Below, one piece after another: positions 22,683 through 32,917 of a DNA stretch of 64,000 nucleotides. Position 1 is the stretch's first letter; each line of letters starts with the position of its first letter. Source of the stretch: Buttiauxella massiliensis (GTDB lineage: Bacteria; Pseudomonadota; Gammaproteobacteria; Enterobacterales; Enterobacteriaceae); NCBI RefSeq assembly GCF_902500225.1, contig NZ_LR722652.1, forward strand, positions 62,001-126,000, in the 5' to 3' direction. The notes beneath the pieces were generated by a model. That model saw only the letters and a list, made by a program, of their open reading frames with translations. It was not told the origin of the DNA and ran no database searches. A program made the position numbers and the translations under genes.

Positions 22683-23258
22683 ATGAAGGCATATAAGCCA
22701 CTTGCAGTCCTTATTACTGCGCTACTTCTACAAGGTTGTGTTGCTGCCGCAGTCGTGGGTACCGCAGCAGTCGCCACTAAAACGGCGACAGATCCGCGTT
22801 CAGTCGGTACTCAGGTTGACGATGGTACGCTGGAATTGCGCGTAAATAGCGCGCTTGGCAAAGACGAGCAAATTAAGAAAGAAACGCGTATCAACGTGAG
22901 TGCGTATCAGGGCAAAGTGCTGTTGGTTGGACAGTCGCCTAATTCCGAACTCTCATCGCGTGCCAAACAGATTGCGTTAGGCGTAGATGGCACCACAGAG
23001 GTGTATAACGAAATCCGTAACATGGCGCCAATTGGCCTGGGAACGGCGTCTAACGATACCTGGATAACGACCAAAGTGCGCTCTCAACTGCTGGCAAGCG
23101 ACCAGGTAAAATCGACGAATGTGAAAGTCACTACCGAGAACGGCGAAGTGTTCCTGTTAGGTTTAGTCACTGACAGAGAAGCCAAAGCTGCGGCAGATAT
23201 TGCCAGCCGCGTCAGCGGTGTGAAGCATGTGACGACTGCGTTTACGATGCTGAAGTAA
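22683..23258 (+). CDS. dolP: division- and outer-membrane stress-associated lipoprotein DolP (YraP)
   Basis: The 191-residue protein matches E. coli DolP. Signal peptide and lipobox LLLQGC place the lipidated Cys at residue 19. Two BON domains follow (about 45-110 and 125-190). It sits at the inner face of the outer membrane, binds phospholipid and supports envelope integrity. It ends the rsmI-dolP conserved block; the next 670 bp are a giant palindrome instead of the E. coli neighbours. Confidence 0.95.
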   Translation: MKAYKPLAVLITALLLQGCVAAAVVGTAAVATKTATDPRSVGTQVDDGTLELRVNSALGKDEQIKKETRINVSAYQGKVLLVGQSPNSELSSRAKQIALGVDGTTEVYNEIRNMAPIGLGTASNDTWITTKVRSQLLASDQVKSTNVKVTTENGEVFLLGLVTDREAKAAADIASRVSGVKHVTTAFTMLK

Positions 23259-23271
23259 TCCTCCACGGAAG

Positions 23272-23911
23272 CTGTCTCTTGGTCATCTCTGTGTGAGTCG
23301 CGAGACAGTTCCGTTCACCCGATGTTCCGTGTTTCATATAGCCACTGTACCGGTGAACGTCTTAGGGTGGCCGCCGTCACCACCCTAAGAACCCGGACTC
23401 CCGGCAAATCAATCGCCGCAAGCGGTAAACCTCCATTTTGCCTCCGTGTCAGGGTCGGTTGCGATTCGTTCCCGACGATCGCGCCCTCCAGCCGTTCCCG
23501 ACGGCTGGACCCTGCCACCTGGAGTCAAAATGGAGGCGATTGAAGCCGGAACCAAAGGTCAACGTCAAAGGCTAAAAACCACACTGAGCCGGTTTTGACC
23601 TTGTTCCCGGTATAAATTGCCCCAGTTTTCTCCATAAGTCAGGGTGGCGCCGTCGGGAACGGCGCCAGTGAGCGATCGTCGGGAACGAGTCGCGAACGAC
23701 CGTGATGTTGGGGATAAGCTGGGGTTTACCGCGCAGCGGCAATTTAATCACCGGGCGACGGGGTCGCCAGGGGGATGTCGTTATCCCACTGGCACGTTCA
23801 CCGTTTGCAGGAATGAAAGAGATAACTGAACGCTCGGGTGAACGGAAAATCAACGAGGCTCAAAGATCTCACCCTGACAAAATGCCCGGGTGAGTTGTGA
23901 CTAAGAGACAA
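23272..23911. repeat. giant imperfect palindrome (about 640 bp) with transposon-like ends
   Basis: The gap between dolP and the convergent regulator gene is almost entirely one inverted repeat centred near 23577. Paired arms share this centre: 23309-23322 with 23834-23847 (14 of 14), 23351-23360 with 23794-23803, 23415-23431 with 23723-23740 (imperfect), 23461-23482 with 23672-23693, 23488-23508 with 23646-23666, and 23546-23562 with 23595-23610. Four local hairpins have TCCCG loops, or CGGGA in the mirror copies. The outer ends CTGTCTCTTGGTCA and, reverse-complemented, TTGTCTCTTAGTCA resemble the IS50 inside end (IS4 group). No coding frame is credible. A MITE-like element is the best guess. 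Confidence 0.75.
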
Positions 23912-23931: not shown

Positions 23932-25842
23932 CTAAAACCGACTCAAACAATCCATTGCCACCGCTTTAAACTCCTCAAAACTCTTACTATCGCGCAAACG
24001 CGGCATCGCCCTTTCACGCAGAAACGTGACAAACAGATCGTAAATCGCCATCGCTTCTTCGTACTCGCTTTTACTGATAGCAAGCAAGAAGATGACATGC
24101 GCCGTCTCATCTCCCCAGCGAATACCTTGTGGTGCAAGCACTGTGTACACCACGGTTTTGTTCGCCATCAGCCCCAATGAGTGAGGCAGTGCAATCCCCT
24201 CGCCCAATACGGTGCTGACGATAGCTTCACGCTCAACCACTGAAGGGTAAAAATCGGCCGCTACATAGCCTTCTCGTTCAAGCTGCTGGCAAAGCATGCT
24301 GAACAACTCCTGCTGAGTCATCGGCTCATCAACCACCCGGAAATGGCTGGCATCAAAGAATTTTTCCAGCATGTATGGGCGTGTGCGATCCACCAGCACC
24401 AGCTTGCCCAACTGTTCAAGTTGGTACTCTGTCGGGAATGGGGCCACCACCACAGTAGGCTTTTGTTTATCGCTAATGCGCGCCGTGGAAATAACAAAAT
24501 CCTCTTCCACGTCGTCGAGCTGTTCATAATCGCGCAGGGAAATGATCCGCGTGACCTCAATTTGAGGGTATTTACGCAACAGCATCGCCTGAATCATGCG
24601 TACCGTGGAGTTCCCGGTATCGCAAACCAGCAGCACGCGCGGATGGCGCTGATAACCAATGTTGTAGTGCCGCTCAAGTCCCACCCCAATATGTAGCACC
24701 AGGAAACCAATTTCGTTTTCGCTGATGACATATGGCGTGTATTTCCCCCAGCTCGACACCGCCGCAAGCGTCATGTCATAAGCCATCGGGTAGTGCTGTT
24801 TAATATTGCCTAGCAGGGGATTAGGAATATTTATCTGATAGCGCACACGGGTAATCATAGTTTTGATATGCGTGAGCAAATCAGCATGTAGCTGCTTATC
24901 GGTCAGTAGGTTGTAGTTATAGTTGTTGTTGATAAAGCTCAGAATATAATTCACCAGCGCTTCATCGTCGTCAGCACTGATAGCGCTCGCCGCCACCGCT
25001 TGCACCTGGCGCGAGGCAATATGAACTTGCAGCCATTGCTCTTCCGCCTCGGAAAGCGCTTTACCAGCAAGCTCCTGTAACAGTACGGTGATTTGTTTTG
25101 CGGCTTCACGCACCGCTTCGTCTACATTGTCAGCGCTAAATTCCGGCAGCGGGTAACCCTCACTGATACGGCGAACCGCAACGGCGCAATATAAACGGAT
25201 AAACTGTTCACCTTCGTCAGTCAGGCGGATACGGCAGCGCGTAAAACAATTGTGCAGTTCTGCCGCCAGTTGTTCTGGCACTCCTGCATTGAGCACTTCT
25301 TCAGTCAGCAGTGGATTTTCGCAATCTTCCTGCGTGAGTTTCCAAAGCAGATCGGTCAGACAGGCACGCACCGACATTTCACTGCCAAACAGCTTCATGC
25401 CGTGGCGCGGGCGGGTTTCAATCGTCAAGTTGTAGCGTGCCAGCCAATCACGAACCTCAGCCATATCGCTTTGCAATGTCGCACGGCTAACAAACCACTC
25501 TTCGGCCAGATCTTCGAGTTTTAAAGAGAAGGCTGACGTCAGAAAACGCACCACTAAATAGTGCACGCGTTCCGGGGAATTACGGGGAATACGCAGCTGA
25601 CGTGAAGGCTGCTGCTGGAGTTCTTCATACAGCGCTGGGTCTGCAATATTGAGCTGATAACCCGCTCCGCGATTCAGGACAAACTGCGCGCCATGCCCGA
25701 CCATCAGCGCATTTAAAGCGGTAATATCCGCGCGTACAGTGCGGGTAGAAACGGATAATCGCCGTGCCAGTTCATCCTGGAGCAGCGTCTCGTTTTGCAG
25801 CATTTCAAACAGTTGGGCCAGACGTTGGTTTGGGAATCTCAC
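23932..25842 (-). CDS. BglG/MtlR-type regulator with HTH, two PRD, EIIB-like and EIIA-like domains
   Basis: The 636-residue multidomain PTS-controlled transcription factor has an N-terminal helix-turn-helix (about 5-45; LQDELARRLSVSTRTVRADI) and a second winged helix (about 88-145). PRD1 spans about 185-285 and PRD2 about 295-395 (His325 and His384). An EIIB-like domain has Cys407 in VLLVCDTGNST. A C-terminal EIIA domain has His554 in EGIALPHSLG. Such proteins are DNA-binding activators whose activity depends on PTS phosphorylation. It is the last gene of the ten-gene operon, 15 bp after the lactonase gene, so it is likely autoregulated and specific for this operon. Confidence 0.88.
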   Translation of the reverse strand: MRFPNQRLAQLFEMLQNETLLQDELARRLSVSTRTVRADITALNALMVGHGAQFVLNRGAGYQLNIADPALYEELQQQPSRQLRIPRNSPERVHYLVVRFLTSAFSLKLEDLAEEWFVSRATLQSDMAEVRDWLARYNLTIETRPRHGMKLFGSEMSVRACLTDLLWKLTQEDCENPLLTEEVLNAGVPEQLAAELHNCFTRCRIRLTDEGEQFIRLYCAVAVRRISEGYPLPEFSADNVDEAVREAAKQITVLLQELAGKALSEAEEQWLQVHIASRQVQAVAASAISADDDEALVNYILSFINNNYNYNLLTDKQLHADLLTHIKTMITRVRYQINIPNPLLGNIKQHYPMAYDMTLAAVSSWGKYTPYVISENEIGFLVLHIGVGLERHYNIGYQRHPRVLLVCDTGNSTVRMIQAMLLRKYPQIEVTRIISLRDYEQLDDVEEDFVISTARISDKQKPTVVVAPFPTEYQLEQLGKLVLVDRTRPYMLEKFFDASHFRVVDEPMTQQELFSMLCQQLEREGYVAADFYPSVVEREAIVSTVLGEGIALPHSLGLMANKTVVYTVLAPQGIRWGDETAHVIFLLAISKSEYEEAMAIYDLFVTFLRERAMPRLRDSKSFEEFKAVAMDCLSRF

Positions 25843-25857
25843 GGCCGTTTCCTTTCG

Positions 25858-26964
25858 TTAATCGGGTGCAGCACCTGTCAAAACCATCTGTGACGGGCTG
25901 CCAACCGCAATGTAATCCTCAACAAAATTCAGTTTTCCAGTCGGCTGCGCCACGCTAAAACGCGCGATGTTATCGCTGCGCTGATTCATTACGTACAGAT
26001 ACTTTTCATTATGGCCGAGCGTTAGCGTGCGCGGGTAATCACCCCGCGTCCAGACGTGCTCCACAAGTTCCAGCCTGCCATTCGCAGCAACGCTAAAATG
26101 GCCGATGCTGTTGTGCAAACGGTTCGCAACATACAGCTGTTTCCCGTCTTTGCTCAACACCAGGCCTGACGCAAAGCTAGTGCCCTTGAACCCCTTAGGT
26201 AGCGAGGAAATGCTCTCGCCCTCGGTTAGTGTTCCTTTGGCTACATCAAGTTGGTAGTGGGTAAGCGTAGAAGATTCTTCGTTGATCAACCATAAGCCAT
26301 CACCCTTTGGCGTGAATACAAAATGGCGTGGCCCTGCACCTTGCGATGAGGCGTCAATATAGGGAGGATCGTTTGGCGTGAGCTCGCCGTGGGTTTTATC
26401 GAAACGATATTGATAGATCCGATCGAGTCCAAGATCGGTGGTAAAGATGAATTTACCACTCGGATCGGTGGCGATCATATGTGCATGCGGGCCACTGTGG
26501 CCGCTGGCCGCAAAACTGCCTTCCACGGCGGCTTCTGGTTTTTTGGCGCCCGCTGGCCCTGCATCCTGTTGAATATCCGTGGCCTGGCCCAGGCTGCCAT
26601 CGCCCTTGACTGGCAATACGGCAACGGAACCGCTGCCGTAATTCGCCACCAGCAAATGCCGCTCGTCCGGCGTAAGCGTGAGATAGACCGCCCCAGCACC
26701 GCCCGATGAAACCTGATTCAGTTCAGTAAGATTGCCATCATCCCCAACACGCAACGCTGCAATCACGCCGTTTTCAGTTTCGCTTGCCACATACAGCGTT
26801 TTACCCTCTTTCGAGGCGGTGAGCTGCGCGGCATTCGGCAGTTCACTGACCAGCGTTTTGCGGGTCAGTGCACCGGTTTCGGCATCGACATTAAAACGGT
26901 AAATCCCTTCACCATTTGGGTTGTAGGTACCGACCCAGGCGAATTGCGTTTGTGTTGCGGGCAT
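25858..26964 (-). CDS. lactonase-family seven-bladed beta-propeller protein
   Basis: The 368-residue protein of the 6-phosphogluconolactonase-like (lactonase, YbhE/Pgl) family starts with TQFAWVGTYNPNGEGIYRF. Repeated blade motifs follow (LTPDERHLLVANYGSGSVAV; SKDGKQLYVANRLHNSIGHF; YVMNQRSDNIARF). It has no signal peptide, so it is cytoplasmic. In this operon, with a deacylase, an ammonia lyase and an aldolase, it probably opens a sugar-acid lactone or its phosphate to the free acid. It lies 25 bp after the aldolase gene. Confidence 0.8.
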   Translation of the reverse strand: MPATQTQFAWVGTYNPNGEGIYRFNVDAETGALTRKTLVSELPNAAQLTASKEGKTLYVASETENGVIAALRVGDDGNLTELNQVSSGGAGAVYLTLTPDERHLLVANYGSGSVAVLPVKGDGSLGQATDIQQDAGPAGAKKPEAAVEGSFAASGHSGPHAHMIATDPSGKFIFTTDLGLDRIYQYRFDKTHGELTPNDPPYIDASSQGAGPRHFVFTPKGDGLWLINEESSTLTHYQLDVAKGTLTEGESISSLPKGFKGTSFASGLVLSKDGKQLYVANRLHNSIGHFSVAANGRLELVEHVWTRGDYPRTLTLGHNEKYLYVMNQRSDNIARFSVAQPTGKLNFVEDYIAVGSPSQMVLTGAAPD

Positions 26965-26989
26965 TGATGATCCTCATGGTTATCAGGTT

Positions 26990-27730
26990 TTAGCCAACCA
27001 ACTTCTTCGTCATATCCAGCAAAGTGCGCACATCTTCCGGACGTGTATTGCCGCTCGCTTTATCAATAATTGAGCTGTAAATATGCGGAATGATCTTACT
27101 CACTCCCGTATCCAGTGCGATCTTCAGGATTTCTTCGTAGTTCTCAAGATCGATCCCGCCAGTCGGTTCCAGCCAGAAATCGTGTTTTGCACAAGCCAGT
27201 GCCACCGCATGGAACTCATCACGGTATTTCAGGCCACCCATCGGGAAATATTTGATTGAGCTGCCGCCCATATCTTTGAGCAACGCGATAGCGGTATCTA
27301 CCGGCACAATACCGTCAGAAGAAGCTGAACTCAGTGGGCCGGTGGAAATTTTTACCATCCCGACCATTCCCGTTGGAGAAACCAGGCCATTGACCACGCT
27401 TTCATTTTGCCCAAGCAACGCACGACTTGCACCCACGCCGGTAAACACCTGGTTTACGTGCTGCGGTTGCACCTGGCGGGAGATTTCACTCACCATTGCC
27501 GACTGGTTTGGGTCACCTGCGCCAAGGCCAACAGAAAGCGCATTTTCGATCAATGCCGCATATTCACGCATATCCGCTACGGCAGTTGCTACATCAGGGT
27601 AATTTTTAGAAAGCACGCCGACCAGAACATGGCCTTCTGCAGCGTCATAAATCTCTTTCGCGTTATCTTTCGAACCCGCCAGCACATTCAGGCATACACG
27701 GTCACGATAAAAATTCGGGGTCAATTTCAT
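26990..27730 (-). CDS. DgaF-like 2-dehydro-3-deoxy-6-phosphogluconate aldolase (KDGP_aldolase family)
   Basis: The 246-residue protein belongs to the family of Salmonella DgaF, distinct from Eda. Family stretches are NVLAGSKDNAKEIYDAAEGH, GLVSPTGMVGMVKISTGPLS and SSIKYFPMGGLKYRDEF. The Lys in IKYFPMGG is the probable Schiff-base residue by analogy with class I KDPG aldolases. The expected reaction is KDGP to pyruvate and glyceraldehyde-3-phosphate. Its start overlaps the upstream DgaE-like stop by 4 nt (ATGA), so the two are translationally coupled, as the two-step pathway would need. Confidence 0.85.
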   Translation of the reverse strand: MKLTPNFYRDRVCLNVLAGSKDNAKEIYDAAEGHVLVGVLSKNYPDVATAVADMREYAALIENALSVGLGAGDPNQSAMVSEISRQVQPQHVNQVFTGVGASRALLGQNESVVNGLVSPTGMVGMVKISTGPLSSASSDGIVPVDTAIALLKDMGGSSIKYFPMGGLKYRDEFHAVALACAKHDFWLEPTGGIDLENYEEILKIALDTGVSKIIPHIYSSIIDKASGNTRPEDVRTLLDMTKKLVG

Positions 27731-28845
27731 GCCTGTTTCTCCTTGCTGACCAATGCCTTAATGCATTGATAGATAATCTCTAACTGTTGCGAGCTGACGC
27801 TACGCACATCGGCTTCGATAATCCCTTCGTTGGCTTTGTAGCCACGGAAGAAAATCGCATATTCGCCCTGTTTCAGCGCGCTCACCAACTCGACGGTGCT
27901 GACGCCAATCGCCGCTTCATCAAACTTAATTTCAGTACGGGCGATGTCGCGACCGGCTGCATCCCACACCACGCGGGCTGTGATCCCCTCAAGGGTGTTG
28001 AGGCTCTCGATAAACGGCGTCATTTTTTCGACCATCTGTGCGCCGCTTTCTTTGGCTGCCGTTAAATAGTGTTCGATAGCGCTGGTCAGGCCAAGAATAC
28101 CTTCTTTGCCGACTTTCATGGCGCGGCCAATGCCGCCTGTTTGCAGCTTCACCCACTCAACATACTGCGCTTTGCCAATTACCAGGCCGCTGGTTGGCCC
28201 TTCAATGGCTTTTGCGCCGCTGTAAATCACCAGGTCAGCACCTGCGCGGTAGTAGCACTGCAAATCTTCTTCCGCTGCTGCATCAACAATCAGCGGCAGG
28301 TTATGTTTGCGCGCCACGACAGCAGCCTGCTCTACGCTAAGCATGCTTTTCTGAACCGAGTGATGCGATTTGATATACAAAATGGCGGCAGTGCGTGGGG
28401 AGATGGCAGCAGCTAATTGTTCGGCAGAACATTCGTTGGCATAGCCCGCTTCCACCACTTTGCCACCACCGAGATAAACCATCGTGCCCACCGGCGCGCC
28501 GAAGTTCACGTTGTGGCCTTTCGGCAACACAATTTCGTTGTTCTCAAGTGGCGTGCCGTGCAGGTTTTCAATCAGCCAGGCGTTGTCCTTCACAAGCACT
28601 GCCGCCACAGATTGCGCGATACCCGCAGATGCGCAAGACACTACTGTTGCGGCTTCAACATCCAGCAGCCTGGCGATGTACTCCCCGGTTTTGTTCACCA
28701 GGTCTTTCATCTCAAAATAGTGATTCATACCGTTGGTCACGGCTTCAACCACTTCCGGGCGCGGGGTAGAAACACCGAGTGCCGTCATGCGGCCAGAGGC
28801 ATTAATGACTTGTTTTAAATTATATTTCTCATAAATCGAAGACAT
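27727..28845 (-). CDS. DgaE-like PLP-dependent ammonia lyase (SelA-related fold)
   Basis: The 372-residue PLP enzyme starts at the ATG at 28845 (MSSIYEKYNLKQVINASGRM); an upstream frame extension to 28977 runs into the previous gene and is not conserved. Motifs are MTALGVSTPRPEV, SCASAGIAQS and VIYSGAKAIEGPTSGLVIG, which holds the PLP-binding Lys in SGAK. The family includes Salmonella DgaE, D-glucosaminate-6-phosphate ammonia-lyase, which yields KDGP and ammonia. It resembles SelA only in fold. The 17-nt overlap with the amidohydrolase gene shows tight coupling. The substrate is therefore probably a 2-amino-2-deoxy sugar acid phosphate. Confidence 0.85.
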   Translation of the reverse strand: MSSIYEKYNLKQVINASGRMTALGVSTPRPEVVEAVTNGMNHYFEMKDLVNKTGEYIARLLDVEAATVVSCASAGIAQSVAAVLVKDNAWLIENLHGTPLENNEIVLPKGHNVNFGAPVGTMVYLGGGKVVEAGYANECSAEQLAAAISPRTAAILYIKSHHSVQKSMLSVEQAAVVARKHNLPLIVDAAAEEDLQCYYRAGADLVIYSGAKAIEGPTSGLVIGKAQYVEWVKLQTGGIGRAMKVGKEGILGLTSAIEHYLTAAKESGAQMVEKMTPFIESLNTLEGITARVVWDAAGRDIARTEIKFDEAAIGVSTVELVSALKQGEYAIFFRGYKANEGIIEADVRSVSSQQLEIIYQCIKALVSKEKQA

Positions 28846-29962
28846 GTTCTTGTTTCCCTTGTTCGGTCGTAAACCATTTCCCGGAGCGAACGGCGGCAAG
28901 TGCCACCAGCAGTTGTTCGCCCTGGAGCGTCTGATTTTCGGAATCGGTAAATACCGTCGGCTGGCGGCGTTGGGCAAAAATCGTCAGGTCGCCATCAAGC
29001 CCCACAGACAAACGCCCTTTATTCGTCAGGCGTAAACCTTGCGCGGCATGCGTGGTAACGCAATCAATCACTTGTGGCAGCGACATGCCAATGGAGAGGA
29101 ATTTGGACATCACCACGCCGAGGCTATGTACCGGGCCGTTAATGCGGTTGCGGCAGTAAATATCGGAGCTGATGGTGTGTGGCAGAATTCCTTTGCTGAT
29201 GGCGATTTTCGCTACTTCGAAGCTGAAACTGGCAGAACCGTGGCCCACATCAAGGCGCACGCCACGCTGAATGGCGCTTGAAATTGATGCCCGCAATTCA
29301 CCGGCAGATGTCAAAATGCGGTTCGGTTTGCCGTTGTAGCAGTGGGTAATGATGTCACCGCTTGTCAGCAAATCGGCAATTTCATCAAGGTCAGGCGGGT
29401 TATTACCGATGTGTACCATCAGCGGTAATTTACCGTTTTCGCGCTGGATTTCTTTCGCGCGCTCCAGCGGTTTAATGCCGTTGGCACCCACTACGCTGCT
29501 GCTCATGCGCGCTTTGATGCCAACGATAAAACCAGGATGGCGTTTCACCGCATCACGTGCGGCGATTTTGTCGATATTCGTCATATCCGACAGTTCGTTC
29601 TGCGCAATCAGTCCAACGCGAGAGATGTTCAGTAACGCATAAACATCCGTCGTCGCTTTGCGAGTTAGCTCGTAAAACTCGTCGATATCGTCAGCGCCTG
29701 TGCTCCCGGCATCAACAACAGTCGTCACGCCTGTATTAATGCCGATACTGTCCGGGTCATCGTGATAGATGGGGGATTTTTGGTAACAGTGGACGTGGGA
29801 ATCAATCCAGCCTGCGCTGACATAATATTCACCATTGAGCTGGCGTTCTTCTTGCGCCTCACCCGTGATTTCGCCAAGTGCGGCAATTTTTCCATCCTTC
29901 AGCGCGATGTCGATAACGGTGTCATCCACCAGACACGCGTTGCGCAGGATTAAGTCGAACAT
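28829..29962 (-). CDS. amidohydrolase/deacetylase of the EF0837/AHA_3915 type (COG3964)
   Basis: The 377-residue metal-dependent amidohydrolase is often misannotated as dihydroorotase. The binuclear metal site is visible as SAGWIDSHVHCYQKSP (HxH), a Lys in FIVGIKARMSS (bridging), MVHIGNNPPD and THCYNGK (His residues), and DVGHGSASFSF (Asp). Members of COG3964 have been reported to hydrolyse acetylated small acids in vitro, with unclear physiology. Genes of this type often neighbour DgaE/DgaF-like pairs. Here it likely removes an acyl group from an amino-sugar acid before ammonia elimination. It follows a 117-bp gap that contains repeat copy A. Confidence 0.82.
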   Translation of the reverse strand: MFDLILRNACLVDDTVIDIALKDGKIAALGEITGEAQEERQLNGEYYVSAGWIDSHVHCYQKSPIYHDDPDSIGINTGVTTVVDAGSTGADDIDEFYELTRKATTDVYALLNISRVGLIAQNELSDMTNIDKIAARDAVKRHPGFIVGIKARMSSSVVGANGIKPLERAKEIQRENGKLPLMVHIGNNPPDLDEIADLLTSGDIITHCYNGKPNRILTSAGELRASISSAIQRGVRLDVGHGSASFSFEVAKIAISKGILPHTISSDIYCRNRINGPVHSLGVVMSKFLSIGMSLPQVIDCVTTHAAQGLRLTNKGRLSVGLDGDLTIFAQRRQPTVFTDSENQTLQGEQLLVALAAVRSGKWFTTEQGKQEHVFDL

Positions 29963-29995
29963 GGTTTTCTCCTTCAGAAAGATCCCGTAGCCGAT

Positions 29996-30066
29996 TATTA
30001 GGGGAAGTTCAGGGAATTGGTTCCCGGAGGGATGCCAAGCCCTGAAATCGCCCCGGGTATCTCCAG
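29996..30066. repeat. 71-bp structured repeat, copy A (inside the operon)
   Basis: In plus orientation it has TTAGGGGAA, then a stem TTCAGGG / CCCTGAA (30008-30014 with 30040-30046) around GGTTCCCGGAGGGATGCC, ending GGGTATCTCC. Copy B at 32849-32917 is the same element in the opposite orientation, with the stem bases changed on both sides. Copy A sits in the only long gap of the ten-gene operon, between DUF4310 and the amidohydrolase gene. Boundaries are good to a few bases. Confidence 0.75.
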
Positions 30067-30079
30067 CCCCCGCTTCGGC

Positions 30080-30721
30080 CTACAAAGCAATCGGGAAGAA
30101 TGCTCCAAAAAGCATCGCGCCAAGAATCGCGCCACCGGTAATCGGCTTGTTCCACAGATAAAACAGCAGAGAACCAATCAGCGAGCCAATACCAATCGGA
30201 ATAGAAGCGGTCATTGCGCTCAGGATAATCAACGGGCCAAGGAAGCGGCCGGATGCGTTACCCGCGCCCATCATGACGTCTGCCCCGTAGGTTGAGTTGC
30301 TCTGGTTGACGGTGAATTTACGCGCCAGAATAATCACATAACCAATCGCCAGGCCAATCACCAGCCCCGTCACCAGCGATGCCGCAAAGTTCGCAACCGG
30401 GAAGATAATGCCCGCGCCGAGTAACAGCGCTGGAACGCCAAGACCTACGCCGGTTTGAATCGCCCCGCCGATATCCAGAATCCCGACCAGCGAACCTTCA
30501 ATGATGCGGGCAAACAGAAAGCTGGCACCAAACGCGGCGACTGCGCCATACACACCGGTATCAATCCCGGCACGCAGCATGGAAACAAACGCCACTTCGT
30601 TGAATGCCCCAATGCCGTAGAGGTAATACATGTGTGTCCCGGCGAACACGCCGGAAGAAAGCAGGCCAACGAAAATCGGGAATGACCAGTCGGCGTACCA
30701 AAAACCTTTATTCGTTTCCAT
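30080..30721 (-). CDS. DUF4310 family membrane protein (putative transporter subunit)
   Basis: The 213-residue integral membrane protein has about six hydrophobic segments, many Gly/Ala-rich (FVGLLSSGVFAGTHMYYLYG; GIIFPVANFAASLVTGLVIG). It ends in FGAFFPIAL. ATG 30721 is chosen because GGGAG lies 6 nt upstream; a GTG one codon earlier is possible. DUF4310 genes occur next to DUF4311, DUF4312 and SFCGS genes, and the set is not functionally characterised to my knowledge. It probably forms a permease with DUF4311, by analogy with the two membrane subunits (IIC/IID) of mannose-type PTS; that analogy is inference. Confidence 0.8.
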   Translation of the reverse strand: METNKGFWYADWSFPIFVGLLSSGVFAGTHMYYLYGIGAFNEVAFVSMLRAGIDTGVYGAVAAFGASFLFARIIEGSLVGILDIGGAIQTGVGLGVPALLLGAGIIFPVANFAASLVTGLVIGLAIGYVIILARKFTVNQSNSTYGADVMMGAGNASGRFLGPLIILSAMTASIPIGIGSLIGSLLFYLWNKPITGGAILGAMLFGAFFPIAL

Positions 30722-30732
30722 CACAGGCTCCC

Positions 30733-31509
30733 TTATTTTCCGCTCATCGAGTTATGGATCAGACTGAGCCAGTCCGGCACGGTCAGATGGAAGGATTCGA
30801 TCATTTTCATATCGAAGCCACGGAAGAAGCCACTCAGCACAAACAGCGCGATAATCGCCACCATCATCACTTTAGTGACGTGGTTCCAGCCGCTCTCTTC
30901 CACGCCTTTACCAATCAGGATGCCAAGCACCAGACCAGGTACGGCGTTGCCCATAATCAGTTGCGCACAGCCACCGAAAATAGTGGCCCAGAAGCCTGAT
31001 TTTTTACCGGCATCAATCGCCGCCAGCCAGAAAATCACTGGCATGATGATGGTCACCAGCAAGTTCGCCGCAGGGACCAGCACTTTTACTGCGGTAACCT
31101 GTAGTGCAGCGGGAACGGCAGACGCGGTGGTGTTAAGGAAGGCCACTACAATCATGCCGATGATGCCGCACGCGACAGCCATTTTGCGTGGATCGTGCAG
31201 GGTCTCAGCCACGTTGCGATTTTTCATCATCAACGCGGCGGCACCCCAGTGTGGGATAATTCGGTGGTCAACGTCCTGAGTAAAAGCACCCGCAGCAACG
31301 GACGACGCCCAGGCGTTGAAGAAGAAACCTAAACCAAATGAGAAGTGTGAAGCCGGGTCGCCTTCGCAGGAGTTCAGCTCGCCGAGGGTACGAAAAGCGC
31401 CCATACCTTGCGTGGTCGGCGCATGAAACATACGTGCAGCCCCGGCGCCCACTCCAACGCCAACCAGACCGCCGATGATTAGCGATTTTATTAATATAAT
31501 TAAGAACAT
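30733..31509 (-). CDS. DUF4311 family membrane protein (putative transporter subunit)
   Basis: The 258-residue integral membrane protein has about six to seven helices. A conserved-looking loop, GELNSCEGDPASHFSFGLGF, followed by FFNAWASSVAAGAF, contains a Cys, several charged residues and a His. That composition is unusual between membrane segments and suggests a substrate or cofactor site. A second loop reads DVDHRIIPHWGAAALMMKNR. It lies 11 bp before DUF4310 and 23 bp after DUF4312. No known transporter signature is visible; a transport role is inferred from context. Confidence 0.8.
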   Translation of the reverse strand: MFLIILIKSLIIGGLVGVGVGAGAARMFHAPTTQGMGAFRTLGELNSCEGDPASHFSFGLGFFFNAWASSVAAGAFTQDVDHRIIPHWGAAALMMKNRNVAETLHDPRKMAVACGIIGMIVVAFLNTTASAVPAALQVTAVKVLVPAANLLVTIIMPVIFWLAAIDAGKKSGFWATIFGGCAQLIMGNAVPGLVLGILIGKGVEESGWNHVTKVMMVAIIALFVLSGFFRGFDMKMIESFHLTVPDWLSLIHNSMSGK

Positions 31510-31532
31510 CTGTCTGTCCTTTCTGTGTGATT

Positions 31533-31829
31533 TTATTGGGGGATGAAGTCTACTTTGTCCATATTGATGGCCGTCACACTGACCGAAACATCCAGCTCCA
31601 CGCTGAACATCTGTTTTTCACGTTTCAGAAAGAAGAACAAAAAAGCCTCTTTCTTGACCTGCACTCGCGCCTGAACAACCTGCACATCCTGTGGCTCAAT
31701 ACGCAGTAAAATGTGGGGAGATGACTTCATAACCGAGCCCTGAACATGATTCAGGGCATCAGCAAAGGCCTTGGCTTTAGTGTCGCCACGACCTTTCACT
31801 CTCACCGTTTCGGAGAAGTGTTCTTTCAT
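31533..31829 (-). CDS. DUF4312 family small soluble protein
   Basis: The 98-residue protein starts MKEHFSETVRVKGRGDTKAK and contains the segment VMKSSPHILLRIEPQDVQVV. A hydrophobic but short stretch, EAFLFFFLKREKQMFSVEL, is probably a buried strand rather than a membrane helix. It is always seen in this four-gene context in the families I know, and no biochemical role is known to me. It lies 2 bp after the SFCGS gene, so stoichiometric translation with it is likely. Confidence 0.75.
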   Translation of the reverse strand: MKEHFSETVRVKGRGDTKAKAFADALNHVQGSVMKSSPHILLRIEPQDVQVVQARVQVKKEAFLFFFLKREKQMFSVELDVSVSVTAINMDKVDFIPQ

Positions 31830-31831
31830 GC

Positions 31832-32194
31832 TTAGTTACCGTACTTCTTAGCCCAGGCCAGAACTAAGCGCTCGCCCAGTTCTTCTTTATCCATAAAGCC
31901 GAAGCCCAGCACGTTGTTGCCTTCGTTGATGGCGGTGACGCCCTCTTCAACTGAACGCATACCGTATTTGGCTTTATAACCATGTTTGGTTTGCGCGGTG
32001 ATGGCACCTGCGCCGCCACTGCCACAGAAAGAGATGCCGAACGTGGCATTTTCAGCTTTCATCACATCGCCAAGTTTCATATCAGCGGCAACACCAGGAA
32101 TAACCACGGCACGGCCGCCTGCTTTCTCAATCCCTGCTGCCACTTTTTGGCCTTTACCCAGGCGGTCGCCGATCACTACGGTAATTTGTTCCAT
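31832..32194 (-). CDS. glycine-rich SFCGS family protein (possible EIIB-like phosphocarrier)
   Basis: The 120-residue cytoplasmic protein starts at ATG 32194 (MEQITVVIGDRLGKGQKVAA) after a GGAG ribosome site; 21 extra in-frame codons upstream are not conserved. The family motif GISFCGSGGAGAITAQTKHG carries Cys57. A Rossmann-like start with a glycine-rich loop and one invariant-looking Cys recalls PTS EIIB domains, which carry phosphate on Cys. This is only an analogy, and no EIIB homology can be shown by eye. It follows the PRD gene by 17 bp. Confidence 0.78.
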   Translation of the reverse strand: MEQITVVIGDRLGKGQKVAAGIEKAGGRAVVIPGVAADMKLGDVMKAENATFGISFCGSGGAGAITAQTKHGYKAKYGMRSVEEGVTAINEGNNVLGFGFMDKEELGERLVLAWAKKYGN

Positions 32195-32211
32195 CTGAAT
32201 CTCCTGATTAT

Positions 32212-32547
32212 TCAAAGATTGTCTTTCGCGACTTCGAAATGCACTGACAGCAACCACGCCTCTTCAACCGGCAGATTGCCAAACTGTTCGACGACTGCTT
32301 TTGCCATTTCCAGAGAGTCATCAGAAATTTCCTCAAACAGGCTTTCTTCAACTTCTGGTAACGGTTCGCCGGTCAGTGACCGGTGCGCCATGGCGCGAAC
32401 GTGGGATGTCAGCATCTGCTCCTGAACTGCGTTTGGCGTAATGTTTCGGCCTTCCAGCAGCGTCCTGATAAACGCCAACACTTGCTCCGTAAGTTGTGTG
32501 GCGTCGGTACTTCCGGCGTCATTAACCTTTACCGCTCCGTTATTCAC
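32212..32547 (-). CDS. single-PRD-domain small protein (first gene of the operon)
   Basis: The 111-residue protein consists mainly of one PTS regulation domain. Two histidines sit where PRD phosphorylation sites are found: His49 in MLTSHVRAMAHRSL and His103 in EEAWLLSVHFEVAK. The start is taken as GTG 32547, with GAGG 8 nt upstream; an in-frame ATG at 32622 would extend through the predicted operator and is rejected. It has no DNA- or RNA-binding domain, so it may be a phosphorylation-state sensor or a subunit of the transporter. Confidence 0.72.
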   Translation of the reverse strand: MNNGAVKVNDAGSTDATQLTEQVLAFIRTLLEGRNITPNAVQEQMLTSHVRAMAHRSLTGEPLPEVEESLFEEISDDSLEMAKAVVEQFGNLPVEEAWLLSVHFEVAKDNL

Positions 32548-32615
32548 ACTGCATACCTCGTTTACTGATATGGCTCTAAGGTATCGGCGAGGGTTAAAGG
32601 TTTGTAGCGAGTTGT

Positions 32616-32635
32616 TTTCCACTTTGAAGTGGAAA
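32616..32635. promoter_or_regulatory. candidate operator palindrome of the ten-gene operon
   Basis: A perfect palindrome, TTTCCACTT-TG-AAGTGGAAA, has 9-bp arms and lies 69 bp upstream of the GTG start of the PRD gene. Its position and symmetry suit a dimeric activator such as the operon-encoded BglG/MtlR-type regulator. Confidence 0.6.
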
Positions 32636-32697: not shown

Positions 32698-32717
32698 AAT
32701 GTGATTACAGTCACGGA
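32698..32717. promoter_or_regulatory. candidate CRP site upstream of the ten-gene operon
   Basis: TGTGATTACAGTCACG at 32700-32715 matches the CRP consensus TGTGA-N6-TCACA except for the last base. It lies about 63 bp upstream of the operator palindrome on the promoter side, as expected for a catabolite-controlled carbohydrate operon. Confidence 0.65.
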
Positions 32718-32848: not shown

Positions 32849-32917
32849 TGAGATACCCAGGGCGGCCACCAGGTTTGGCGTCCCTCCGGGAACCAAATCC
32901 CGGTGTTTCCCCTAATT
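32849..32917. repeat. structured repeat, copy B (upstream of the operon, inverted relative to copy A)
   Basis: Reverse-complemented it reads TTAGGGGAA, CACCGGGATTTGG, TTCCCGGAGGGACGCC, AAACCTGGTG, then GGGTATCTCA, aligning base by base with copy A. The stem is CACC(G)GG / CC(T)GGTG in place of TTCAGGG / CCCTGAA, so pairing is kept while the bases differ. The 613-bp gap 32548-33160 also holds the operator, the CRP site and an IS30-like remnant; I see no other gene in it. Confidence 0.75.

What the first reader, a model, noticed from the sequence alone, without database searches (positions are those of the whole stretch)
23932..32635. Ten-gene operon pairing an uncharacterised DUF4310/4311/4312/SFCGS/PRD module with a Dga-like catabolic set
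One compact minus-strand unit runs PRD protein, SFCGS, DUF4312, DUF4311, DUF4310, amidohydrolase, DgaE-like, DgaF-like, lactonase and PTS-controlled regulator. Most gaps are under 26 bp or overlaps. Known Salmonella dga operons pair DgaE/DgaF with a mannose-type EIIABCD; here that slot is filled by proteins with no assigned function. The simplest reading is a new type of sugar-acid transporter, possibly PTS-linked.
Basis: partly seen in the sequence, partly recalled or inferred. Interest (0 to 1): 0.85.

Follow-up and report, generated by a model that had tools for sequence, protein, structure and literature searches.

The report
Amino-sugar-acid operon with unknown membrane module
A ten-gene bacterial operon that probably imports and breaks down an amino-sugar acid carries, where its known relatives carry a standard sugar-uptake system, four proteins of unknown function that may be a different kind of uptake system.

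Summary
In detail: ten co-directional genes at 23932-32622, eight belonging to one catalogued but functionally blank cluster (TIGRFAM EF_0829-0839/AHA_3910-3917). The window is Buttiauxella. New evidence concerns the slot. In 149 genomes of the window's family, all 69 DUF4311 copies have DgaE 1.9-2.1 kb downstream, and the 11 other DgaE genes above the model cut-off each have a mannose-type EIIC 0.9 kb away. DgaE keeps three arginines proposed to bind the substrate phosphate; no relative of the E. faecalis cluster kinase lies in 80 loci; two related Bartonella plasmids add an HPr-EI gene. This fits PTS-linked uptake. Against a canonical permease: no detected EIIC/EIID homology, no invariant histidine in the two soluble proteins, and an E. 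faecalis cluster with its own EIIC besides. SFCGS may be a remote relative of RpiB/LacAB; E. coli YhfY is a relative of the PRD protein, so the unsolved yhf operon may be a distant cousin. A DUF4311 model matched no solved fold clearly. Best reading: an unrecognised uptake module for an N-acylated 2-amino-sugar acid. Linkage is shown; transport, substrate and PTS coupling are inferred.

The parts
32212..32547 (-). small PRD-domain protein (TIGR03582); ORF open to 32622, likely start GTG 32547
   Evidence: H74 and H128 (numbered on the 136-aa ORF) invariant in 86 of 86 sequences
31832..32194 (-). SFCGS glycine-rich protein (PF14272/TIGR03577), possibly a remote RpiB/LacAB relative; invariant Cys57
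31533..31829 (-). DUF4312 (PF14189/TIGR03578), small soluble protein without invariant His or Cys
30733..31509 (-). DUF4311 (PF14188/TIGR03580), polytopic membrane protein
30080..30724 (-). DUF4310 (PF14187/TIGR03579), polytopic membrane protein
28829..29962 (-). amidohydrolase/deacetylase-type metallohydrolase (TIGR03583)
   Evidence: matches PDB 8wzy with 616 bits over 376 of 377 residues and 2ics with 364 bits; candidate metal-ligand residues conserved
27727..28845 (-). DgaE-family PLP ammonia-lyase (TIGR01437); R303, R334, R348 match the arginines proposed to bind phosphate in DGL
26990..27730 (-). DgaF-family 2-dehydro-3-deoxy-phosphogluconate aldolase
25858..26964 (-). seven-bladed lactonase (PF10282), optional member
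   Evidence: found in 47 of 80 loci
23932..25842 (-). HTH-PRD-EIIA regulator
32700..32715 (.). CRP-like site upstream of the operon
   Evidence: not above chance in the window alone; 32 of 80 loci against 0.88 expected
29963..30079 (-). gap between module and catabolic genes that holds a 67-nt repeat

Best explanation
The operon encodes uptake and catabolism of an N-acylated (or lactam/lactone) 2-amino-sugar acid. DUF4311 and DUF4310 form the membrane part, SFCGS and DUF4312 the cytoplasmic part, of an uptake system that does for this operon what the mannose-type EIIABCD does for the Salmonella dga operon. The substrate becomes a 6-phosphate on or soon after entry, directly or indirectly at the cost of the PTS phosphorelay. 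The amidohydrolase then removes the acyl group (or opens a cyclic amide), the lactonase where present opens a lactone, DgaE removes ammonia to give a 2-keto-3-deoxy-6-phospho acid, and DgaF splits it to pyruvate and glyceraldehyde-3-phosphate. The PRD protein and the HTH-PRD-EIIA regulator switch the operon by PTS phosphorylation, with probable CRP control. Shown: gene content, strict linkage, residue conservation. Inferred: transport, substrate, phosphorylation, order of steps.
For: Slot partition: 69 of 69 DUF4311 copies have DgaE 1870-2118 bp downstream on the same strand. 11 of 11 other above-cut-off DgaE genes have a mannose-type EIIC on the same strand 908-928 bp away, and in those 11 genomes none of the 44 EIIC places lies within 10 kb of DUF4311 (distances read from the tables). 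Two polytopic membrane proteins plus two small soluble ones parallel the IIA/IIB/IIC/IID count. Phosphate: DGL arginines 301, 332 and 346, placed near the phosphate by manual docking (PMC9529869, passages read), are conserved in 86 of 86 DgaE sequences here, E. faecalis and Bartonella among them. No relative of the E. faecalis sugar kinase lies in any of the 80 loci (BLASTP). PTS link: an HPr-EI gene follows the regulator on two related Bartonella plasmids, two PRD histidines are invariant, an EIIA domain sits in the regulator. CRP-like sites upstream in 32 of 80 loci.
Against: The E. faecalis cluster has a PF02378 EIIC, a MupG-type protein and a PfkB kinase beside the module, so the module need not be the only uptake route and a kinase may do the phosphorylation there. 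DUF4312 has no invariant His or Cys and SFCGS only Cys57. No homology to EIIC/EIID and no clear fold match. The arginine cluster is a docking proposal and, by eye, is also kept in the more distant 8t7j homologue, so it may be a general family trait. Other DGL residues fit less well: Arg226 (carboxylate) is Lys in the window and in 70 of 86; the paper's Lys-217 does not fall on a lysine in the chain numbering I used; His162 is Ala in 2 of 86. DgaE lies below the curated D-glucosaminate-6-phosphate lyase cut-off (375.5 against 600 bits). The HPr-EI gene may serve only the PRD regulators.
Confidence: 0.45

Rival explanations
1. The four proteins form an ordinary secondary transporter, unrelated to PTS chemistry. 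The substrate is phosphorylated by a kinase encoded elsewhere, or arrives already phosphorylated. PTS involvement is limited to the PRD regulators.
For: No invariant histidine in the soluble subunits; no IIC/IID homology; a PfkB-type kinase is part of the E. faecalis cluster; PRD regulators alone could explain the HPr-EI gene in Bartonella.
Against: No kinase relative in 80 of 80 loci (one kinase query only; kinases elsewhere in the genomes were not searched); two additional conserved soluble proteins are unusual for a secondary transporter (general knowledge).
Confidence: 0.27
2. The module is an intracellular or membrane enzyme complex. SFCGS acts as an RpiB/LacAB-like isomerase or phosphosugar-binding protein, and DUF4311/4310 handle a membrane-bound intermediate. 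Uptake is by a transporter elsewhere, as the separate EIIC in E. faecalis suggests.
For: SFCGS profile matches RpiB (hhalign E 3.8e-5, 0 of 200 column shuffles reach the score) with its invariant Cys57 on the RpiB CGxG cysteine; E. faecalis has its own EIIC and a MupG-like protein.
Against: No other transporter gene lies within the unit in the window or in the annotated Klebsiella and Bartonella records; DgaE elsewhere is paired with a permease gene; the RpiB similarity falls to background when residues 53-64 are masked (E 0.023), and sequence searches of solved structures found no RpiB chain.
Confidence: 0.16
3. The module is a membrane sensor that feeds the substrate signal to the PRD regulators, not an uptake system.
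For: The PRD gene heads the module in the Gammaproteobacteria and Bartonella loci and follows a second regulator gene in E. faecalis.
Against: Four components with ten hydrophobic segments are more than PTS sensing is known to need; DgaR of Salmonella is controlled through phosphorylation by its own EII (PMC4987338, passages read).
Confidence: 0.12

Closest known systems
Salmonella dgaABCDEF (D-glucosaminate operon, mannose-family PTS)
   Same: DgaE and DgaF families; PTS-phosphorylated regulator; a permease beside DgaE (passages)
   Different: Permease proteins not detectably related; an amidohydrolase and often a lactonase are added; the regulator is an HTH-PRD-EIIA protein, not the LevR-like sigma-54 activator DgaR
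TIGRFAM cluster EF_0829-EF_0839 / AHA_3910-3917
   Same: All eight core families, each above its curated cut-off
   Different: The models assign no function to the four module proteins; an E. faecalis record adds EIIC, MupG-like protein and PfkB kinase
E. coli K-12 yhfSTUWXYZ-php operon
   Same: PRD protein YhfY hits TIGR03582 (E 1.6e-6, below its cut-off); E. faecalis SFCGS hits the YhfU family DUF2620 at E 0.034, and both hit LacAB_rpiB weakly; also has a large uncharacterised protein YhfT, a PLP enzyme and a metallohydrolase
   Different: Direct profile comparison of SFCGS with YhfU is not significant (E 0.013-0.022) and YhfT shows no detectable similarity to DUF4310 or DUF4311 (four sequences each on the yhf side); the enzymes are of other families
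RpiB/LacAB sugar-phosphate isomerases (PF02502)
   Same: CGxG-type loop with an invariant cysteine and a collinear C-terminal stretch
   Different: Below the Pfam cut-off (E 0.088 and 0.23); the second residue of the N-terminal Asp-His pair reads Arg by eye; solved RpiB chains not found by sequence

Membership tests
EF_0829/AHA_3910 conserved cluster | eight TIGRFAM families over their cut-offs, adjacent | tested here: met
Mannose-family PTS permease (EIIABCD) | IIC (PF03609) and IID (PF03613) sequence families | tested here: not met
   no such match up to E 10 for four DUF4310 and two DUF4311 proteins
Mannose-family PTS permease (EIIABCD) | remote homology or shared fold with IIC/IID | tested here: inconclusive
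   hhalign E 0.03-0.18, but IIC against IID itself gives only 0.058, so the test is insensitive; fold searches without a clear match
Mannose-family PTS permease (EIIABCD) | conserved phosphorylatable histidines in soluble IIA and IIB | tested here: not met
   SFCGS H71 is H in 31 and Y in 35 of 66; DUF4312 has no invariant H or C; SFCGS Cys57 is invariant
DgaE (TIGR01437 family) | model over cut-off | tested here: met
   600.4 against 385.3 bits
[quoted passage not shown]
   375.5 bits
[quoted passage not shown]
   86 of 86 sequences for each; residue roles from PMC9529869 passages
[quoted passage not shown]
   Lys in the window; K 70, R 16 of 86
DgaF aldolase (NF047796) | model over cut-off | tested here: met
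   394.4 against 300 bits
RpiB/LacAB (PF02502) | Pfam gathering score | tested here: not met
   11.8 and 13.2 bits against 24.7
RpiB/LacAB (PF02502) | remote profile homology | tested here: inconclusive
   E 3.8e-5, probability 71%, 90 columns; 0 of 200 shuffles reach the score, but it rests largely on residues 53-64 and solved RpiB chains were not found
RpiB/LacAB (PF02502) | isomerase activity | not testable with these tools
   -

The most novel reading that the evidence does not exclude
The module is a new, independently evolved group-translocation system: PEP-derived phosphate reaches the substrate via an RpiB-like cysteine protein (SFCGS Cys57, perhaps charged by the EIIA domain of the adjacent regulator, a domain that was not detected in the E. 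faecalis regulator), with DUF4311/4310 as a membrane pair unrelated to known EIIC/EIID. The E. coli yhfT/yhfU pair would be a second branch of the same kind.
Probability: 0.13. Interest if true: 0.88.

Novelty: new variant of a known kind. Interest (0 to 1): 0.62.

Why it matters
It gives four families of unknown function a testable joint role: in this sample every DgaE gene above the model cut-off sits beside either a known permease or this module. If the module phosphorylates its substrate it would be a PTS-coupled system unlike the permease classes known to me. The link from the PRD protein, and more weakly from SFCGS, to YhfY and YhfU gives a handle on the still unexplained yhf operon of E. 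coli K-12.

Tried and rejected
YhfT as a fusion of DUF4311 and DUF4310: nothing detectable (hhalign E 0.23-0.31; only four YhfT sequences). DUF4311 against DUF4310: no similarity. DUF4310 against ManY: a 106-column alignment with 31% identity looks suggestive but E is 0.12; not claimed. In one search one EIID row (L148) was wrongly an EIIC reading frame, which gave a false IIC-IID match; removed and rerun. The weak PF14188 hit on contig C16 of the own genome is not YhfT: it overlaps a J-domain-like protein (the J-domain reading is by eye). The similar weak hit in the E. coli control genome was not examined. G755 (26.9 bits) was dropped as of the same kind; G679, a fragmented copy in a 49%-complete genome, was kept. 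Two weaker full-length or interrupted TIGR01437 relatives below the cut-off (G659 310 bits, G701 243 bits with one stop) and the SelA-like hits were not examined for neighbours; the list was cut at its weak end.

Papers: ten searches in a library that holds only open-licence PMC papers. DUF4310-4312, SFCGS, EF0837 and the TIGR numbers returned no relevant paper; (PF14187, PF14188, PF14272, DUF2620, YhfX, YhfW) listed 20 of 31 papers, none of those 20 with the three PF numbers. [quoted passage not shown] PMC12502629 lists ef0834 among NagY targets, annotated as a cellobiose-family PTS gene; PMC7396535 notes dgaEF duplication in E. faecalis; PMC2912369 found the putative promoter of ef_0839 or ef_2975 in a urine-induced screen; PMC9120511 used ef0836 as a qRT-PCR control; PMC10746210 and PMC12524618 gave only references of use. 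Rfam: no credible RNA in the operon.

Limits: the 80 loci are the best 80 of 500 and nearly all Gammaproteobacteria; one Firmicutes neighbourhood (L129) and one alphaproteobacterial lineage (two near-identical Bartonella plasmids) were seen. An Aeromonas record (L133) showed only six of the ten genes by BLASTP, three core genes (DUF4310, amidohydrolase, DgaE) missing as open frames; the cause was not examined.

Full report
WHAT IS THERE. The ten reading frames lie at 23932-32622 on the minus strand. NCBIfam puts eight of them above curated cut-offs in one set of models named after E. faecalis EF_0829-EF_0839 and A. hydrophila AHA_3910-3917, so the cluster has been catalogued before, without a function for the four module proteins. 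The remaining two are a PF10282 lactonase and an HTH_11-Mga-PRD-PRD-EIIA regulator. The window is Buttiauxella: DUF4311 is 100% identical in the B. brennerae and B. gaviniae records, and the 117-bp gap between DUF4310 and the amidohydrolase is shared with the B. gaviniae locus but not with B. brennerae.

LINKAGE. I retrieved 80 loci with a DUF4311 alignment from genome contigs (the best 80 of 500 confirmed). All 8 core genes are in 80 of 80; the regulator in 77 of 80 (the three others, L018, L044 and L088, are cut short by contig ends); the lactonase in 47 of 80; a relative of the E. faecalis kinase, MupG protein or of the Bartonella HPr-EI in 0 of 80. One locus (L071) has a PF02378-like EIIC (33% identical to that of E. 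faecalis) about 2.8 kb upstream. Detection was BLASTP at E<=1e-5 over half the query, so distant genes could be missed. An Aeromonas record (L133) showed only six of the ten genes.

THE SLOT. In 149 genomes of the window's own family DUF4311 matched in 70; one weak hit (G755, 26.9 bits) was dropped as spurious, leaving 69 (68 intact, one fragmented). TIGR01437 (DgaE) was over its cut-off in 69 of 149 genomes, at 80 places. All 69 DUF4311 copies have DgaE on the same strand 1870-2118 bp downstream; 11 DgaE genes are elsewhere in the same genomes. In those 11 genomes each of the 11 extra DgaE genes has a mannose-type EIIC (PF03609) on the same strand 908-928 bp away, and none of the 44 EIIC places lies within 10 kb of DUF4311 (distances read from the tables). 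So each of the 80 above-cut-off DgaE places has one of the two modules beside it. Two weaker relatives below the cut-off (G659, G701) were not examined. More widely the family is patchy: DUF4310 in 12 of 398 Pseudomonadota genomes, all in the window's family, and DUF4311 in 1 of 274 of a class-wide sample, the one being the window's own genome.

OUTSIDE THE FAMILY. Two closely related Bartonella plasmids carry the core cluster, the regulator and then an HPr-EI gene (domains). In an E. faecalis record (a 747-kb 'plasmid' that also carries murF and a D-alanine-D-alanine ligase gene and may be chromosomal) the order is regulator, PRD, SFCGS, DUF4312, DUF4311, DUF4310, EIIC (PF02378), a 99-aa protein, MupG-like protein, amidohydrolase, DgaE, DgaF (found by BLASTP) and a PfkB kinase; no EIIA domain was detected in its regulator. 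This is the main fact against a simple 'replaces the PTS' reading.

THE PATHWAY. [quoted passage not shown] The proton donor His163 is conserved in 86 of 86 sequences, His162 in 84 of 86, and the arginines 301, 332 and 346 that were placed around the phosphate by manual docking (PMC9529869, passages) in 86 of 86. Less well matched: Arg226, placed near the carboxylate, is Lys in 70 of 86, and the paper's Lys-217 does not fall on a lysine in the chain numbering I used. The arginines suggest a 6-phosphorylated substrate, with the caution that they look conserved in the distant 8t7j protein too (by eye). The amidohydrolase keeps residues that fit the metal ligands of the superfamily in 96 of 96 sequences, one gap aside (the assignment as ligands is from recall). 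It matches PDB 8wzy, deposited as a dihydroorotase, with 616 bits and 2ics, deposited as an adenine deaminase, with 364 bits (that 2ics is EF0837 is recalled). The lactonase matches 6-phosphogluconolactonase models below their cut-offs. From this I infer an N-acylated or cyclised 2-amino-sugar acid as substrate. Salmonella uses DgaABCD to take up and phosphorylate D-glucosaminate (PMC9529869, passages).

THE FOUR PROTEINS. DUF4311 and DUF4310 each show five strongly hydrophobic segments; SFCGS and DUF4312 none. Conservation is extreme: the 140 other DUF4311 rows are 64-91% identical to the window's. Invariant charged residues and histidines in the membrane proteins include DUF4311 R26, R40, E44, H55, D79, H82, R83 and D233 (124 of 124) and DUF4310 H31, E43, E76, D84, D149, R160 and K193 (184 of 184). 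SFCGS has one invariant cysteine (66 of 66) and no invariant histidine; DUF4312 has neither. A profile of SFCGS matches RpiB/LacAB with E 3.8e-5 over 90 columns, while nine other families, YhfU among them, gave E 0.022 or worse; none of 200 column shuffles reaches the score (best shuffle E 8.6e-4), but masking residues 53-64 brings it to E 0.023, and sequence searches of solved structures with SFCGS found no RpiB chain. E. faecalis SFCGS hits DUF2620 (E 0.034, residues 5-103) and LacAB_rpiB (0.23), Bartonella SFCGS hits LacAB_rpiB (0.088), YhfU hits LacAB_rpiB (0.065) and its profile matches RpiB at E 1.6e-3. I take remote homology as likely, not proven. The DUF4311 model (pLDDT 82) has no clear match among solved structures.

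REGULATION. H74 and H128 of the small PRD protein are invariant in 86 of 86, as expected for phosphorylatable PRD histidines (general knowledge). A CRP-like site lies at 32700-32715; by itself it is not above chance in the window (2 found, 1.92 expected), but 32 of 80 loci have one in about 410 bp upstream of the PRD gene, against 0.88 expected from mononucleotide shuffles (the loci are related and not independent). The gap between DUF4310 and the amidohydrolase holds sequences that look by eye like hairpins or REP-type repeats in many of the 30 gaps printed; none was folded.

VERDICT. A real, conserved operon of a known but unexplained cluster, best read as a Dga-type pathway whose usual PTS permease is exchanged for an unrecognised four-protein uptake module. 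The linkage is shown; the transport function, PTS coupling and substrate are inferred.

Noticed in passing
window 29997-30063 and 32850-32916: A 67-nt element in inverted copies (79% complementary) lies at both ends of the PRD-SFCGS-DUF4312-4311-4310 module; 5 places in the genome in all. The first copy is absent from the B. brennerae gap, so it may be a small mobile repeat.
   Followed up: partly
window 23422-23732: Inverted repeat with 103-nt arms, 74% complementary, 105 nt apart, downstream of the operon between it and the ORF at 22683-23258.
   Followed up: no
L003 6936-14345 (E. coli K-12 yhf operon): YhfY matches the PRD family of this cluster (E 1.6e-6) and YhfU is weakly linked to RpiB and to E. 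faecalis SFCGS; the yhf operon may be a distant cousin.
   Followed up: partly
L130 8047-10062, L131 15405-17420: Bartonella plasmids carry an HPr-EI fusion gene after the regulator of the cluster, near type VI secretion genes.
   Followed up: partly
L129, L132, P0169, L033: Labels look doubtful: a 747-kb 'plasmid' with murF, a 5.4-Mb 'plasmid', a DUF4311-DUF4310 protein listed under a fungus, and a Chryseobacterium-labelled contig carrying the enterobacterial cluster.
   Followed up: no
P0140, P0169, P0191, P0205: Four database proteins join DUF4311 and DUF4310 in one chain, with residues missing at the junction or the N-terminus; perhaps assembly or frameshift products, but they keep the gene order.
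   Followed up: partly
L133 (Aeromonas caviae record): The cluster shows PRD, SFCGS, DUF4312, DUF4311, DgaF and regulator, but no open frames for DUF4310, amidohydrolase and DgaE over half length; decay or sequencing error was not examined.
   Followed up: no
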